A stretch of DNA of 64,000 nt, from contig NZ_JAELVQ010000002.1 of NCBI RefSeq assembly GCF_016428595.1, positions 248,001-312,000 of the forward strand, in the 5' to 3' direction. Shown one piece after another: positions 23,651 to 33,183 of this stretch. Origin of the DNA: Snuella sedimenti (GTDB lineage: Bacteria > Bacteroidota > Bacteroidia > Flavobacteriales > Flavobacteriaceae). Position numbers and translations under genes: made by a program. The notes beneath the pieces were generated by a model, which made no database searches, was not told the DNA's origin, and saw only the letters and a program-made list of their open reading frames with translations. How positions within the stretch are numbered: the stretch's first letter is position 1; every line of letters begins with the position of its first letter.

Positions 23651-23680
23651 AAAAAACCGCAAGACGCGGTTTTTTGTTTT
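23651..23680 (-). terminator. Rho-independent terminator downstream of the DsrE gene
   Basis: The hairpin AAAAAACCGC-AAGA-CGCGGTTTTTT is flanked by A and T runs on both sides. It would end the TsdA/Tat/DsrE transcript (minus strand) 23 bases past the DsrE stop and can work in both directions. Confidence 0.85.
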
Positions 23681-23702: not shown

Positions 23703-24116
23703 TTATTTTCCTTCTTTTATATAGCCCCAGCCTTCTTTTTGCTTGTTAACGATTTCCAGGATGCCATCGGGAACGCTCCTAACGCCTTCAATAAGTTGTG
23801 AGGCATCCGTTTTATGGCGTTTCATGGTGCCTTCGCATATCACAAAATCGATGTTGTCCTTTTTGGCGAGCATGGCCAGATCTTCGGCTACTACCGATTT
23901 GTCCTTAAGTACCATGTCCATGGCACCACTATACATAACGACTTCGAATTTCGAGTCGGGGTAGGCATTGGACATGGCTTTTACATGCCTAATAGTCGAT
24001 TTATGCACTGTATTGTCACTACTGGTAACATCGAATACAATCTTTACTGGGGTGTCTTGTCCGTAAACTGCCAGTGCCATAAAGCAGGACAGTATTAGAT
24101 TTAAAAATGTTTTCAT
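23703..24116 (-). CDS. Periplasmic DsrE-family protein
   Basis: A 137-residue protein with a signal peptide (KTFLNLILSCFMALAVYGQ). The body matches DsrE/DsrF-like proteins: VKIVFDVTSSDNTVHKSTIR, FEVVMYSGAMDMVL, DFVICEGTMKRHK, and the end VPDGILEIVNKQKEGWGYIK. A cysteine at the usual active position is present (VICEG). Such proteins take part in sulfur trafficking. It is the third gene of an operon after a TsdA-like cytochrome and a Tat-exported protein, which supports a role in sulfur compound oxidation. Confidence 0.85.
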   Translation of the reverse strand: MKTFLNLILSCFMALAVYGQDTPVKIVFDVTSSDNTVHKSTIRHVKAMSNAYPDSKFEVVMYSGAMDMVLKDKSVVAEDLAMLAKKDNIDFVICEGTMKRHKTDASQLIEGVRSVPDGILEIVNKQKEGWGYIKEGK

Positions 24117-24139
24117 TTTTTTTTTGATTTAAAGTTCAA

Positions 24140-24817
24140 TTACTCTCCAGCGAAAATATAGCCACAGCCACGTTCCTGTGCTCTTCCCAAAGCCCATACA
24201 CCAGAGGGTACAAGCTGTATGCCCGGTAGTACACCGTTAACCCACTCTTCGTAAACGGCTTTGGGGTCTAGGTTCATTTTTGCAGCAACAGCATTGCTGT
24301 ATACTTTGGTTGCCAAGTCGCAAACGCAGAACATGGCACCGCGTTCCTGCATGCGTTTAACGCCTTCTATTTGGGGTAGCGGGAAATCGCCTTCTTGGGG
24401 TTCGTAATAGGGGTTGCGCTTATACGGTTCGCCCGAAGCTTGCTTGATATTAAATACTTCTCCCAACGGATATTTTTTCCAAAGTTCATCTTTAAAAGCA
24501 ATGGGAATGGCTTCATGTCTTAAGACCGTTACCGCTGTCATCTGTTCATCGGGCGTGCCGGTTTCGTTGTTGGATAAGTAAAAGGCCCAGTTCCAAATAA
24601 CGGGAAATCCTTTGTGCGGTGTCGATCCGTCGTAAACAATGCGGTGCTTGCCTTTAATGTTTTTAAACCAGTTTTCGGCATCTGCCATTTTATTGGAATC
24701 AGCAATAGGTACATCTGCATACATGGGGTTTGTAAGTACTGAGATCGTGCTGGCAGTAGCGCCAAGTGCTAAAGCACCTAGAAACTGCCGTCTTGAATTT
24801 GTGTTCGTTGTTCTCAT
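24140..24817 (-). CDS. Tat-exported protein with DsrE-like C-terminal motif
   Basis: A 225-residue protein with a twin-arginine signal (NSRRQFLGALALGATAST). The mature protein shows the segment HKGFPVIWNWAFYLSNNETG, MFCVCDLATKVYSNA and the end VPSGVWALGRAQERGCGYIF. That end parallels VPDGILEIVNKQKEGWGYIK of the next gene, so a shared DsrE-like fold is likely; this is inference from local similarity. Two cysteines in CVC may be functional. It follows the cytochrome gene by 2 bases. Export in a folded state suggests a bound cofactor or partner. Confidence 0.75.
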   Translation of the reverse strand: MRTTNTNSRRQFLGALALGATASTISVLTNPMYADVPIADSNKMADAENWFKNIKGKHRIVYDGSTPHKGFPVIWNWAFYLSNNETGTPDEQMTAVTVLRHEAIPIAFKDELWKKYPLGEVFNIKQASGEPYKRNPYYEPQEGDFPLPQIEGVKRMQERGAMFCVCDLATKVYSNAVAAKMNLDPKAVYEEWVNGVLPGIQLVPSGVWALGRAQERGCGYIFAGE

Positions 24818-24819
24818 AA

Positions 24820-25857
24820 TTATTTGGTTTTAGTAATGTTAAATGAATCTTTGTAGAACTTTATAATGGGTTGAAAAGGCCCTTTTTTGTGCTGCTCAAC
24901 AGGGAAGGGGTCGGCATAAGGAGGGTAAGGTGTTGAAACGGGTTTCTTTTTAATGTCGGGGAAATCCTTTTCCAGATTCAGCTTTTCGGGGCGCTGTTGC
25001 ATATTGATGTAACCCGCTACATCGTAGGCTTCTTCGTCTGTCAAAACAGGCGCGTCATAGGTCGTTCCAAAAGGCATATTAGCTTTAATGAATTGGGCAG
25101 CTGTGATTACGCGGTTCATCCCGGCACCGTTGTTAAATGAGTTGGGACCCCAAAGAGGTGGGTACTCATAGGAAAAACCATTGGAAGCCATAACGCCTTG
25201 ACCGTCTTTTCCGTGACAAACAATACAGTGCGTTCTAAATAACTGTTGCCCTTTTTCGATGTCTATTGCACGATTGGGAATGTTAATTTTTACAAAGCCC
25301 TTGCCTTTTATATTGCCATCTTTGGGAGCGTAACGACTCAACCAATCCAAAAACGTAACAAGAGCTTGCATTTCCTTACCTGTAACGGGTAATATATGAC
25401 CGTTCATACTGCGTTCCATACAACCATTAATACGTTCTTCGATGGTCCCCATTTTATTTTCCCTGCCTCGAAACTGTGGAAACCTTTGGATGATGCCTAT
25501 TAGTGGTGCGGAATATGGTTTTGTGCCGTTGTTAAGATGACAGTTCTTACAGGCCAATTTGTTGCCAGAATAAGCCATGTTGGGATTGCCGTTTTCCGGA
25601 CCAATATATTTAGGGGTGTTGGTAAACAATTCATAGCCATATTTTATAACATTATTGGCTTCGGAATCGTCCAGTGCCGAAACGTCATAGTTCATATAAT
25701 ATATATCGGGTATATTACTGGAACGTGTCATGAGGTCTTTTGGAAAGGCATCAAAAAATAACAACGTAACAAGTGTGGCTAGTATAAAAATACATCCGAA
25801 ACAGGTTAACAAAACATTTGTTAATTTATGGAATGGGTATGCCCTTTTTTTTGTCAT
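24820..25857 (-). CDS. tsdA: Diheme c-type cytochrome, TsdA-like thiosulfate dehydrogenase
   Basis: A 345-residue protein with an N-terminal membrane anchor or signal (about 12-35). Two heme sites are visible: ACKNCHLNNG near 102-106 and CIVCHGKDGQG near 209-213. Between them, RFPQFRGRENKMGTIEERIN and GCMERSMNG follow the TsdA pattern, in which a cysteine (here in INGC) serves as axial ligand of heme 1. TsdA oxidises thiosulfate to tetrathionate, and some homologs run in reverse. The downstream Tat and DsrE genes fit a sulfur role. The call rests on motifs; related diheme cytochromes of other function are possible. Confidence 0.8.
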   Translation of the reverse strand: MTKKRAYPFHKLTNVLLTCFGCIFILATLVTLLFFDAFPKDLMTRSSNIPDIYYMNYDVSALDDSEANNVIKYGYELFTNTPKYIGPENGNPNMAYSGNKLACKNCHLNNGTKPYSAPLIGIIQRFPQFRGRENKMGTIEERINGCMERSMNGHILPVTGKEMQALVTFLDWLSRYAPKDGNIKGKGFVKINIPNRAIDIEKGQQLFRTHCIVCHGKDGQGVMASNGFSYEYPPLWGPNSFNNGAGMNRVITAAQFIKANMPFGTTYDAPVLTDEEAYDVAGYINMQQRPEKLNLEKDFPDIKKKPVSTPYPPYADPFPVEQHKKGPFQPIIKFYKDSFNITKTK

Positions 25858-30504: not shown

Positions 30505-31056
30505 TTACTTTACAATTTCAATGGAAACTGGTGTTGGATTAGAGATCATGTCGAATACAGGTGAAAACTTGGCTAAATTTTCAAGCTGTTCTACAGTGGC
30601 ATCCGATTTTACTTTTAATTTAAATGTGATACCGTTGAAGCCTTTTCGAATTTCAGGATCTAGGCCTAAGAAACCTTGTAGGTCTATGCCGCCCTCTAAG
30701 GTAGACTCAGCGCCTTCTATATCGATACCGTGAGCTGCAGCATGGTATGTCATGGCTGCTGTTAAACAGGAGCCTAAAGCGTGTAATACTACTTCGGGTG
30801 GTGTAGGTGCTTTGTCGTTACCTAACAGTACGTTAGGGTGGTCGCACTCCATAGTAAAAGTTTCTTGTCGTGTTGTGTCTTCTTGTCCAACACCATAAAA
30901 ACTTTTAATGCTGGATACACAATGACCGCCATCTATCCAATTGTTTTTGGAGCGGAATTCAAATTTTGCAAGTTCTGGGTTTTGTTGTACGGTTTCAATA
31001 GTTTCTACTAATTGGTCTACGTTTACGCCGTTTTTTACATTTGTTGCTGTGATCAT
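30505..31056 (-). CDS. OsmC family protein
   Basis: A 183-residue OsmC-like protein. The family core is visible: LGNDKAPTPPEVVLHALGSC with the conserved cysteine, then TAAMTYHAAAHGIDIEGAES. The other redox cysteine lies in the segment FTMECDHPNVL. OsmC proteins are cytosolic thiol peroxidases or hydrolases against organic hydroperoxides. The gene is preceded by a strong sigma-54 promoter (31110-31126) and ends 87 bases before the PFOR gene. Confidence 0.9.
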   Translation of the reverse strand: MITATNVKNGVNVDQLVETIETVQQNPELAKFEFRSKNNWIDGGHCVSSIKSFYGVGQEDTTRQETFTMECDHPNVLLGNDKAPTPPEVVLHALGSCLTAAMTYHAAAHGIDIEGAESTLEGGIDLQGFLGLDPEIRKGFNGITFKLKVKSDATVEQLENLAKFSPVFDMISNPTPVSIEIVK

Positions 31057-31109
31057 GTTTTCTAAAATTTAAATTATTAAATGATTTTGATTTTGTTTGG
31101 TATATGAAA

Positions 31110-31126
31110 TGCATTTGACGTGCCAA
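31110..31126 (-). promoter_or_regulatory. Sigma-54 (-24/-12) promoter of osmC
   Basis: Read on the minus strand: TTGGCACGTCAAATGCA. It matches the consensus YTGGCACGRNNNTTGCW at nearly all fixed positions, with GG and GC at the correct 12-base spacing. It lies about 54 bases before the osmC ATG. The next gene upstream encodes a sigma-54 activator, which makes the site functionally plausible. Confidence 0.85.
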
Positions 31127-31130
31127 ACAA

Positions 31131-31238
31131 TACAATCTATTGTAAATCAATTAGTTGTAGTTTGATTGCTGTTCGTTTGTAATAACGAGTATTCATATAT
31201 TAACGAGATATCGTTATAATAATAACGGTATTTCGTTA
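31131..31238 (-). promoter_or_regulatory. Clustered inverted repeats, likely activator-binding sites
   Basis: Two 16-base inverted repeats with arms TAACG and CGTTA lie at 31201-31216 and 31223-31238, with centres 22 bases apart (about two helical turns). A third, TCGTT-N6-AACGA, is at 31173-31188. A separate TACAAT-CT-ATTGTA repeat lies at 31131-31144. The TAACG sites are about 75-110 bases upstream of the -24 box, the usual place for an enhancer-binding protein. Binding by the adjacent activator is inferred. Confidence 0.65.
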
Positions 31239-31276
31239 ACTTGTGTAACTTAAATGTTTAGAGTGTAATTAAGTAT

Positions 31277-31334
31277 TAAAGAATTTCTTGAAACGAATAA
31301 TTTCCGAGGCAGTACCTTGAATGGTTCTTTTTCG
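31277..31334. repeat. Mini repeat R3, copy 1
   Basis: TAAAGAATTTCTTGAAACGA plus one more base (31277-31297) is identical to 53559-53579, and both copies continue through a CGAGG block to TTCTTT and GATTAAA. The ends AAAGAA and TTCTTT are complementary. It lies just past the stop codon of the sigma-54 activator gene. Confidence 0.6.
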
Positions 31335-31335
31335 A

Positions 31336-33183
31336 TTAAATAGGGCGTTCAATCCCATGTGCTTTTATTTTGGAAGCAAGTGTAGTAGGCGGGATTTGTA
31401 ATAAAGTAGCGGCACCGTTTTTGCCAGATATCCTCCATTTGGTAAGTTTAAGTGCTTTTAGTATGTTTTCTTTTTCTAAAGCAGTTAACTCTTTAACTGT
31501 AAGTATCTTTTCGGTATTTTTTGCGGTTTCTTTTGGAAGATTGTTGTTAGTTGGGACAATGGCTTGCCAATTGGAAGAACCGTTTTGGGATATGATAACG
31601 GCACGCTCTATTAAGTTTTGGAGTTCGCGTACGTTTCCGGGCCATGTATATGTTGTTAGTAATGTTTTATCGGCTTCTGATAGTTTAACAATGGGTTTGT
31701 TCAATTTTTTAGAAAACTGAGAGAGCATTTCTTTCGCTATGATATAAATGTCGTTGCCACGATCTCGAAGTGGTGGAACCTCAATGGGAAAAACATTTAA
31801 GCGGTAATACAGGTCTTCCCTGAATTTTCCCGCCTTAGAAAATTCCAGGAGATTTCGATGGGTTGCTGCTATAATGCGGACGTCTACTTTAATGGTTTCT
31901 GAGCTGCCAACCGGATCGAACTCGCCTTCTTGGATAATGCGTAGGAGCTTGGGTTGTAATGCAATAGGCAATTCACCTATTTCATCTAAAAAGATAGTGC
32001 CTTTATCGGCGAGTAAAAAACGCCCTTTTCTGCTTGTTGTAGCTCCTGTAAAAGCGCCTTTTTCGTGTCCGAAAAGCTCACTCTCTATAAGATTGGCAGG
32101 AATAGCACCGCAGTTAATCCGAATCAAAGGTTTGTCGTTACGATTGCTTTCTTTGTGAATGGCCCTGGCCACAAGTTCTTTTCCGGTACCGGTTTCGCCA
32201 TATACCAATACGGTAGCGTCTGTCTTTGCAACTTGATGGATTTGGTTCAGCACTTGCTTCATGCTCATGTCTTCGGCTATAATGCCATAGCTACTGGTAA
32301 GCTCTTGAATTTCTTCTTCTAAATATTGGGTTTGTTTGGTTAATAAGTTTATTGTATCCTCGGCAATTAACCGTTCTTCAATATTTCTTAGGATGAGTGT
32401 GTAAAAAGCACCTTCATCGGTACTGTATTTACTAATGGTACCTTCGTTTAGGGTTTCGGTAGTGTTAGAACCAATAACCTTAATAATGTTTGGTAAGTAT
32501 TTGTTAAAGGATTTTGAGTTGTCGTTTAAATTAAGCTTTACCAATGATTCTATTAGTTCGGCACCTTTATCATCAAAAAAGAATAGGACATTCCGCTGTA
32601 GGGGATCATCGTTTTCTAATAATGTGTTGGCAGAGGTATTGGTAAGTAAAATTCTAAAGTTACTGTCAAACATAATAATGGCATCCATAGCACCATTAAT
32701 TAGGCCGCTCATTTTACTATTTGCAATTTCTATCGCTTTATTGGACGTAGCTAAGTGCTCCTGGATGTTATCTAGTTCCCTGTGTCTTTTTATCATTACA
32801 GCTAAAATACCTTGTGCAAAACCGCTATCTGTTTTCATTAAATCCAGAAAGTTTTGACGGTCTATTTTTAATACCTCTGTCTTTTTAGCTGCGGTAACGG
32901 AAGCTGATCGGGCTTGGTTATCTATTAAAGCATATTCCCCAAAGCAATCACCCGTTTTTAAATGGCCATAAATATGTTGGTTTTCATGTACTTTCACTTC
33001 ACCGCTTAAGATAACATACATAGCATGTCCAACGTCATCTTTTCTAAAAACCGTTTCGTTCTTTAAAAAGGTTTCGGTGTGTAAAACATTGCATAAGTGC
33101 TCCAAGGAAGCATTAGAAATTTCAGAGAAAAAAGGAATACTGCTGAGGAACTTTAAAATGCTATTTTTATTACTGTTTGGCAT
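31336..33183 (-). CDS. Sigma-54-dependent activator with cyclic-nucleotide-binding and PAS domains
   Basis: A 615-residue enhancer-binding protein. Residues 10-130 form a cNMP-binding domain with the phosphate-binding cassette [20 protein letters not shown], keeping FGE and the RSA arginine. A PAS-like domain follows (about 155-265: [20 protein letters not shown]). The AAA+ domain (about 305-530) has Walker A GETGTGKE near 330, the sigma-54 contact loop GAFTGA, and FLDEIGEL. A Fis-type helix-turn-helix ends the protein ([20 protein letters not shown]). It lies between osmC and a divergent cyclase gene, suggesting it is switched by a cyclic nucleotide and activates osmC. Confidence 0.92.

What the first reader, a model, noticed from the sequence alone, without database searches (positions are those of the whole stretch)
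23703..25857. TsdA-like cytochrome, Tat-exported protein and DsrE protein in one operon
Spacings of 2 and 23 bases and a common terminator indicate one operon. The Tat-exported protein has a C-terminal block parallel to that of the DsrE protein (VPSGVWALGRAQERGCGYIF versus VPDGILEIVNKQKEGWGYIK), so both could be sulfur carriers next to a thiosulfate dehydrogenase-like cytochrome. A three-component periplasmic sulfur relay would be worth testing in Bacteroidota.
Basis: partly seen in the sequence, partly recalled or inferred. Interest (0 to 1): 0.52.

Follow-up and report, generated by a model that had tools for sequence, protein, structure and literature searches.

The report
Thiosulfate cytochrome with two sulfur-carrier-like partners
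A flavobacterium carries a conserved three-gene unit in which a thiosulfate-type cytochrome is paired with two exported proteins predicted to share one sulfur-carrier fold and its active cysteine, which suggests a way of handling oxidised sulfur on carrier proteins that can now be tested.

Summary
In detail: tsdA-like cytochrome, Tat protein and dsrE lie on the minus strand with gaps of 2 and 23 bases and a terminator-like hairpin behind dsrE. It is also a distant relative, not a member, of thiosulfate dehydrogenase family NF052225. All three genes are present in 72 of 80 named loci examined. In 199 genomes of the family, Tat protein and DsrE occur in the same 23, each with TsdA; 11 more have TsdA alone. 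On Pseudomonadota plasmids, NF052225-type genes lie near a TsdA in 9 of 17 loci examined, in 3 of these with a DsrE. The TsdA keeps the catalytic residues and has Campylobacter-type Asn-Met at heme 2. Best reading: a periplasmic thiosulfate/tetrathionate module in which DsrE-fold cysteines take or release the thiosulfonate group. Activity, contacts, order and direction are untested. New variant of a known kind.

The parts
24820..25857 (-). TsdA-like diheme cytochrome c, 345 aa, with an N-terminal hydrophobic segment (read by eye as an anchor)
   Evidence: PF21342 42.4 bits (cut-off 27); phmmer to TsdA 4wqc E 6.3e-48; Arg132, Arg142, Cys146, Ser150 invariant in 27 of 27
24140..24817 (-). Tat-exported protein, 225 aa, predicted DsrE fold, distant relative of NF052225 thiosulfate dehydrogenase
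23703..24116 (-). exported DsrE/DsrF-family protein, 137 aa (N-terminal hydrophobic signal read by eye)
23651..23675 (-). terminator-like hairpin with T tail behind dsrE
24320..24322 (-). codon of Tat-protein Cys166 (proposed active cysteine)
   Evidence: Cys in 30 of 30 and 80 of 80; last residue of predicted strand 162-166
23835..23837 (-). codon of DsrE Cys94 (proposed active cysteine)
   Evidence: invariant in 25 of 25 and 74 of 74; last residue of predicted strand 89-94
25420..25422 (-). codon of TsdA Cys146, at the place of the heme-1 Cys ligand (A. vinosum Cys96)
25075..25080 (-). codons of TsdA Asn260-Met261, heme-2 distal side (C. jejuni Asn254-Met255; A. vinosum Lys208-Met209)
24788..24793 (-). 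twin-arginine codons (Arg9-Arg10) of the Tat signal

Best explanation
A periplasmic thiosulfate/tetrathionate module. Step 1 (inferred from family; catalytic residues present): TsdA binds thiosulfate to its heme-ligating cysteine (Cys146) as a Cys-S-thiosulfonate and takes the electrons. Step 2 (proposed): the cysteine of the Tat-exported DsrE-fold protein (Cys166) receives the thiosulfonate from TsdA, as SoxYZ is thought to do from SoxAX, or from free tetrathionate, as the archaeal DsrE3A does. Step 3 (proposed): the second DsrE-fold protein (Cys94) helps to cleave or pass on the sulfane sulfur, which would then enter through YeeE-type transporters, be oxidised by an MBL-rhodanese protein and leave as sulfite through TauE; this genome encodes proteins of those three families in another cluster. 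Shown by computation: operon layout, predicted fold, conserved cysteines, co-occurrence, link to TsdA in two phyla. Not shown: any activity, any contact between the proteins, or the direction of flow.
For: Tat protein: AlphaFold2 pLDDT 86.1, pTM 0.79; VIA-align: ST0148 Z 13.3/1.6 A/107 residues, MTH1491 12.2/2.1/111, YchN 10.5/2.5/108, DsrH of DsrEFH 10.1/2.0/99, nine entries at Z 8.8 or more, then 4.6. The DsrE model (pLDDT 94.7) has the same four leading structures. Cys166 aligns with DsrE Cys94 and with the invariant Cys of NF052225-type proteins. Co-occurrence: Tat protein in 23 of 199 family genomes, DsrE in the same 23 of 199, TsdA in these 23 and 11 more. Synteny: 72 of 80 named loci hold all three; a TauE-like gene follows directly in 19 of 80 (Pfam checked in one of the 19). 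Order varies among distant Bacteroidota (tat-tsdA, dsrE-tat-tsdA, mixed strands), which argues for a functional tie. Plasmids: TsdA within the fetched stretch of an NF052225-type gene in 9 of 17 loci, while 52 of 72,556 plasmid records have any TsdA match at E 1e-20. Precedents: PMC4423706 (TsdA thiosulfonate, passages), PMC4175335 (DsrE3A, sections 21 and 27). Own genome: CRP-like regulator, two YeeE-type proteins, TauE and MBL-rhodanese in one cluster.
Against: No activity or interaction was tested. The Tat protein is far under NF052225's cut-off (22.7 against 300 bits, residues 102-220 only) and has no Pfam DsrE match at E up to 1. Foldseek's own overlay is loose (rmsd 4.9-6.0, TM 0.35-0.37 by query length). 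Eight of 80 loci lack tsdA, dsrE or both nearby. Three Tat homologues stand without TsdA or DsrE in 13-20 kb (L165-L167), and two with TsdA have no DsrE in 20 kb (L168, L169). Eleven family genomes have a TsdA but neither partner, so TsdA does not need them. The nine plasmid TsdAs lack the first catalytic Arg in the R-x9-R pattern; in the two aligned it is Lys. Five of 17 plasmid loci show none of TsdA, DsrE or DoxD. NF052225 is named as an enzyme, not a carrier.
Confidence: 0.5

Rival explanations
1. The Tat protein is itself a thiosulfate-oxidising enzyme (like the ~25 kDa TSD of Acidithiobacillus ferrooxidans) and the TsdA-like cytochrome is its electron acceptor or a parallel enzyme; DsrE handles side products.
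For: 28 of 30 Tat proteins match NF052225 at E up to 0.01 (best 5.2e-11); hhalign to 11 plasmid relatives 97.8%, E 7.4e-13 over 210 columns. The A. ferrooxidans TSD reduced neither ubiquinone nor horse cytochrome c (PMC6335251, passages), so its acceptor is open; TsdA or DoxD near the gene could fill it.
Against: The window protein is far below NF052225's cut-off; TsdA alone is known to do the whole reaction (PMC4423706, passages).
Confidence: 0.2
2. The module runs as a tetrathionate reductase: TsdA reduces tetrathionate to thiosulfate and the DsrE-fold proteins assist release or protect the cell from polythionates.
For: 48 of 48 TsdAs compared have Asn-Met-Pro, as the Asn-Met pair of C. jejuni TsdA, which serves tetrathionate respiration (PMC5146829, passages). 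TsdC of Wolinella is an accessory protein that enhances tetrathionate reduction (title only, in the reference list of PMC6879331).
Against: C. jejuni TsdA has similar rates in both directions; flavobacteria are said to oxidise thiosulfate (PMC12345210, one introduction passage); TauE-like and MBL-rhodanese neighbours in some loci fit oxidation better.
Confidence: 0.15
3. The substrate is not thiosulfate but sulfane sulfur (polysulfide, persulfide) and the unit is a reactive-sulfur defence.
For: DsrE-family proteins are persulfide carriers elsewhere (recalled knowledge); near the unit, TauE-like genes in 22 of 80 loci and MBL-rhodanese in 4 of 80 at 54% identity or more, L103 being the query itself, plus 2 partial matches at 26-27%.
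Against: The TsdA residues that act on thiosulfate in A. vinosum are invariant in 27 of 27.
Confidence: 0.1
4. The three proteins are only co-regulated and do not act together.
For: Tat homologues without the others exist; TsdA without the others exists.
Against: Identical genome sets for Tat protein and DsrE; presence of the Tat-type gene needs 2 changes on the TsdA tree; the association recurs in another phylum.
Confidence: 0.05

Closest known systems
TsdA thiosulfate dehydrogenase / tetrathionate reductase (A. vinosum, C. jejuni)
   Same: Two c hemes, Cys at the heme-1 ligand place, equivalents of Arg82, Arg92, Ser100, Met at heme 2
   Different: Longer N-terminal (hydrophobic) and C-terminal parts; Asn instead of Lys at heme 2, as in C. 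jejuni; gene partners are DsrE-fold proteins
NF052225 thiosulfate dehydrogenase (which I take to be the A. ferrooxidans AFE_0042 type)
   Same: Tat signal, profile homology over 210 columns, shared W-x-K-Y stretch, one shared invariant Cys, genomic link to TsdA or DoxD
   Different: Window protein scores 22.7 bits against a cut-off of 300; extra conserved Cys164 and Cys218; no solute-binding-protein gene in the operon
DsrE/DsrF/DsrH, TusBCD, YchN family (PF02635)
   Same: Fold, conserved cysteine at the end of strand 3, C-terminal VPxG...Q..G.GYI block
   Different: Both proteins carry export signals; the Tat protein has 62 residues between strands 2 and 3 (27 in DsrE) and no Pfam match
SoxAX-SoxYZ
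   Same: A SoxA-family Cys-ligated cytochrome that would hand a thiosulfonate to a carrier cysteine
   Different: The carrier would be a DsrE fold; no SoxY match in the genome (in which no control genome rang)
Metallosphaera DsrE3A-TusA
   Same: DsrE-family Cys that takes thiosulfonate from tetrathionate (PMC4175335)
   Different: Linked to TusA and hdr-like genes, Cys-x7-Cys motif; here exported and beside TsdA

Membership tests
TsdA | two CxxCH heme sites and SoxA/TsdA domain above Pfam cut-off | tested here: met
TsdA | Cys ligand of heme 1 and the catalytic Arg, Arg, Ser | tested here: met
   27 of 27, window included; 39 of 48 when the second clade and plasmid TsdAs are added, the 9 misses being all plasmid ones
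TsdA | thiosulfate/tetrathionate activity | not testable with these tools
   no assay
NF052225 thiosulfate dehydrogenase | score over the curated cut-off of 300 bits | tested here: not met
   22.7 bits: a relative, not a member
NF052225 thiosulfate dehydrogenase | homology along the protein, Tat signal, invariant Cys at the same place | tested here: met
   hhalign 97.8%, 7.4e-13; Cys in 11 of 11 and 30 of 30
DsrE family, for the Tat protein | Pfam PF02635 match | tested here: not met
   no match at E up to 1
DsrE family, for the Tat protein | DsrE fold | tested here: met
   (on a predicted model)
DsrE family, for the 137-aa protein | Pfam PF02635 over cut-off, fold, conserved Cys | tested here: met
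Sox system | SoxYZ carrier in the genome | tested here: inconclusive
   no SoxY match, but no control genome rang either

The most novel reading that the evidence does not exclude
A Sox-like, carrier-bound thiosulfate oxidation without SoxYZ: a TsdA cytochrome loads thiosulfonate directly onto an exported DsrE-fold protein, and the cofactor-free 'thiosulfate dehydrogenase' of acidophiles (NF052225) is the same kind of DsrE-fold protein, whose true partner is TsdA or DoxDA.
Probability: 0.27. Interest if true: 0.8.

Novelty: new variant of a known kind. Interest (0 to 1): 0.6.

Why it matters
If the module works as proposed it gives Bacteroidota a thiosulfate route without SoxYZ, ties two unrelated 'thiosulfate dehydrogenases' into one system, and gives the TSD of Acidithiobacillus, whose mechanism a 2019 review calls still to be clarified (PMC6335251, passage), a predicted fold and a testable active cysteine.

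Tried and rejected
Rejected: chance similarity of the C-terminal blocks. Rejected: an unrelated fold for the Tat protein. No support for a sigma-54 promoter before tsdA: with up to 2 mismatches in 1 of 71 upstream regions and 5 of 71 shuffled ones; a Bacteroidota-type promoter pattern in 1 of 71 and 0 of 71. Led nowhere: PDB search by sequence with the Tat protein (two chance hits) or its profile (MTH1491 third at E 0.52, behind two viral chance hits); a close SQR in the own genome (two matches at 24% and 33%).

Limits. Of 333 genome contigs relatives only the best 80 were kept and examined. Of the 72 complete loci, L068 has tsdA cut by the contig start, L081 has dsrE cut by the contig end, and L037 has a stop inside tat. 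'Missing' tsdA or dsrE means not in the fetched stretch. Of 24 plasmid records 17 were examined; they are not independent (two P. fungorum, two Bradyrhizobium, two Burkholderia, two Novosphingobium, M. tundrae twice, three acetic acid bacteria with near-identical DoxD); DsrE and DoxD there were sought with one query each. The Acetobacter record has a TsdA farther off, not counted. The TsdA tree is the quick kind (no bootstrap), and one Tat/DsrE row (L022) groups with three rows that lack them.

Inference, not test: equating NF052225 with AFE_0042 (I did not see the AFE_0042 sequence) rests on the family name, on the 'Tat pathway signal sequence' label of AFE_0042 with a solute-binding protein and doxDA beside it (PMC6335251 passages), and on the order Tat protein, solute-binding protein, DoxD on three plasmids. 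That the family f1 is Flavobacteriaceae rests on the names of the nearest relatives.

Papers: PMC4175335 outline, abstract, sections 21 and 27; passages of PMC6335251, PMC2754497, PMC5146829, PMC4423706, PMC6879331, PMC12345210, PMC11582611; all others as search listings. Kikumoto 2013 and Kurth 2017 (TsdC) were not read. That this operon is not in print rests on the listings, open-access papers only. DsrE proteins as persulfide carriers is recalled knowledge.

Full report
Observation. On the minus strand the window holds a TsdA-like cytochrome (25857-24820), a Tat-signal protein (24817-24140) and a DsrE protein (24116-23703), spaced by 2 and 23 bases, with an 11-pair terminator-like hairpin at 23675-23651. 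The genome has 4.37 Mb in 57 contigs and is 99.7% complete. The DsrE is its only PF02635 match, and the Tat protein its only clear match to itself (next E 0.08).

The cytochrome. It scores 42.4 bits for SoxA-TsdA_cyt-c (cut-off 27) and matches solved TsdA at E 6e-48. In 27 TsdA sequences (window plus 26 relatives) Arg132, Arg142, Cys146 and Ser150 are invariant; by my count along the alignment they stand at A. vinosum Arg82, Arg92, Cys96 and Ser100. The heme-2 pair is Asn260-Met261, as Asn254-Met255 of C. jejuni TsdA and unlike Lys208-Met209 of A. vinosum (PMC6879331, PMC5146829, passages). Asn-Met-Pro is in 48 of 48 TsdAs of the tree set. TsdA works through a Cys-S-thiosulfonate, and SoxAX is proposed to pass the same adduct to the SoxYZ carrier (PMC4423706, passages).

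The Tat protein. No Pfam family reaches its cut-off. NF052225 thiosulfate dehydrogenase matches it weakly (22.7 bits, E 5e-5, cut-off 300), and matches 28 of 30 relatives at E up to 0.01, best 5.2e-11. AlphaFold2 on 80 sequences gives pLDDT 86.1. Foldseek's first three hits are MTH1491, ST0148 and a designed cage protein described as DsrE-like (E 1e-4 to 9e-4, overlay rmsd 4.9-6.0). VIA-align 2 gives Z 13.4 to 8.8 for nine entries, five of them titled YchN or Dsr-family, and 4.6 for the next. The DsrE model (pLDDT 94.7) has the same four leading structures, ten entries at Z 19.8 to 13.1, then 7.3. Strands correspond one to one: Tat 58-64, 93-99, 162-166, 200-203, 219-222; DsrE 25-30, 56-61, 89-94, 112-115, 131-135. 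Cys166 and Cys94 are each the last residue of strand 3, and hhalign pairs them. Cys166 is in 30 of 30 (A1) and 80 of 80 (A4) Tat proteins; Cys164 in 28 of 30 and 80 of 80; Cys218 in 29 of 30 and 80 of 80. Of the three only Cys166 has a counterpart that is invariant in the NF052225-type proteins, 11 of 11.

Distribution. In 199 genomes of the same family the Tat protein is in 23 and the DsrE in 23, the same genomes by handle. TsdA is in 34: those 23 and 11 more. On a tree of 48 TsdAs, presence of a Tat-type gene (plasmid rows counted as having it) needs 2 changes. In a phylum-wide draw 8 of 395 genomes have the Tat protein, the own genome included. In named genomes 333 relatives were found and the best 80 kept, Bacteroidota by title except one titled Chlorobiota: 75 have tsdA, 75 dsrE, 72 both, on one strand in the order tsdA-tat-dsrE and within about 210 bases of tat. 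Without tsdA: L097, L099, L105, L106, L111; without dsrE: L099, L102, L107, L108, L111. A TauE-like gene is in 22 of 80 loci, directly downstream of the unit in 19 (behind dsrE in 18, behind tat in L102); Pfam TauE was checked for L062 and L103. In six distant Bacteroidota loci of the phylum draw: L028 and L029 tat-tsdA, L030 dsrE-tat-tsdA, L031 all three on mixed strands, L027 and L032 tat alone. With wider stretches the last two, and the paralogue L026, still show no TsdA or DsrE in 13-20 kb, and L028 and L029 no DsrE in 20 kb (L165-L169).

A second phylum. A Novosphingobium plasmid protein is a full NF052225 member (332.7 bits, cut-off 300). Eleven such plasmid proteins (A5; only the first was scored against NF052225) align with the Bacteroidota Tat proteins over 210 columns, 97.8%, E 7.4e-13, and with DsrE at 76.7%, 2.1e-5. 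Of 24 plasmid records with a relative I examined 17 loci (one with 6 kb, sixteen with up to 9 kb on each side). Nine have a TsdA, three of these nine also a DsrE; three others have DoxD; five have none of these. In Paraburkholderia fungorum the row is DsrE, TlpA, solute-binding protein, Tat protein, solute-binding protein, cytochrome c, TsdA. In Bosea a three-heme-domain cytochrome with the TsdA domain lies directly before the Tat protein, with YeeE/YedE, TauE and Blh genes nearby. A TsdA match at E 1e-20 is on 52 of 72,556 plasmid records. The plasmid loci are partly related, so the counts are not independent events.

The rest of the route in this genome. Contig C29 has a cluster of a CRP-like regulator, two YeeE/YedE-type (PF04143) proteins, TauE and an MBL-rhodanese protein; the last resembles Blh but is far under its cut-off (64.6 against 625 bits). 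No SoxY match was found, with no control genome ringing. The YeeE-type SoxT1A imports sulfur for oxidation in Hyphomicrobium (PMC11582611, passages).

Mechanism. TsdA would form the thiosulfonate on Cys146; the DsrE-fold cysteines would take it directly, or from tetrathionate, for which DsrE3A of Metallosphaera is the precedent (PMC4175335, sections 21 and 27). Family link, fold, cysteines and gene ties rest on computation; every transfer step is inference. The Tat protein could instead be the oxidising enzyme, or the unit could reduce tetrathionate; the Asn-Met pair at heme 2 leaves direction open.

Second TsdA kind. I fetched 12 TsdA loci without Tat genes: 10 of the 11 genomes with TsdA alone, and second copies in two genomes that also have the unit. 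Six have an OprD-like porin gene and three a different exported DsrE-family protein. So TsdA beside an exported DsrE-family protein is seen in more than one form.

Noticed in passing
L121-L132 (unnamed family genomes): A second kind of TsdA without Tat/DsrE genes has an OprD-like porin gene in 6 of 12 loci and a different exported DsrE-family protein in 3 of 12; L128 and L130 also have SQR-like and YeeE-type genes.
   Followed up: partly
L017, L019, L021, L084, L098: Tat proteins here are more divergent from the window's than their TsdA and DsrE neighbours (for example L019: 60% against 69% and 72%), as if the middle gene had been exchanged inside the operon.
   Followed up: no
window 30505-33183: An OsmC-like gene with a one-mismatch sigma-54-type site at 31125-31110 (the window as a whole has no more such sites than shuffles) and a cNMP/sigma-54 activator gene upstream. 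By eye, OsmC (9), the NifJ-type oxidoreductase (9) and the activator (7) recur near the operon in the 80 relatives.
   Followed up: partly
L037 6001-6672: The Tat gene of Marixanthotalea marina holds one in-frame stop, sequencing error or pseudogene.
   Followed up: no
L026 / L167 (G098:C4): A solitary Tat paralogue keeps Cys166 but lacks Cys164 and Cys218 and has no TsdA or DsrE match on its 13-kb contig.
   Followed up: partly
L103 7122-7598: A MAG titled Chlorobiota has a second DsrE-like gene directly behind dsrE (20.2 bits for PF02635, under the cut-off 22.7), plus SQR-like, YeeE-type, MBL-rhodanese and TauE genes within 6 kb.
   Followed up: partly
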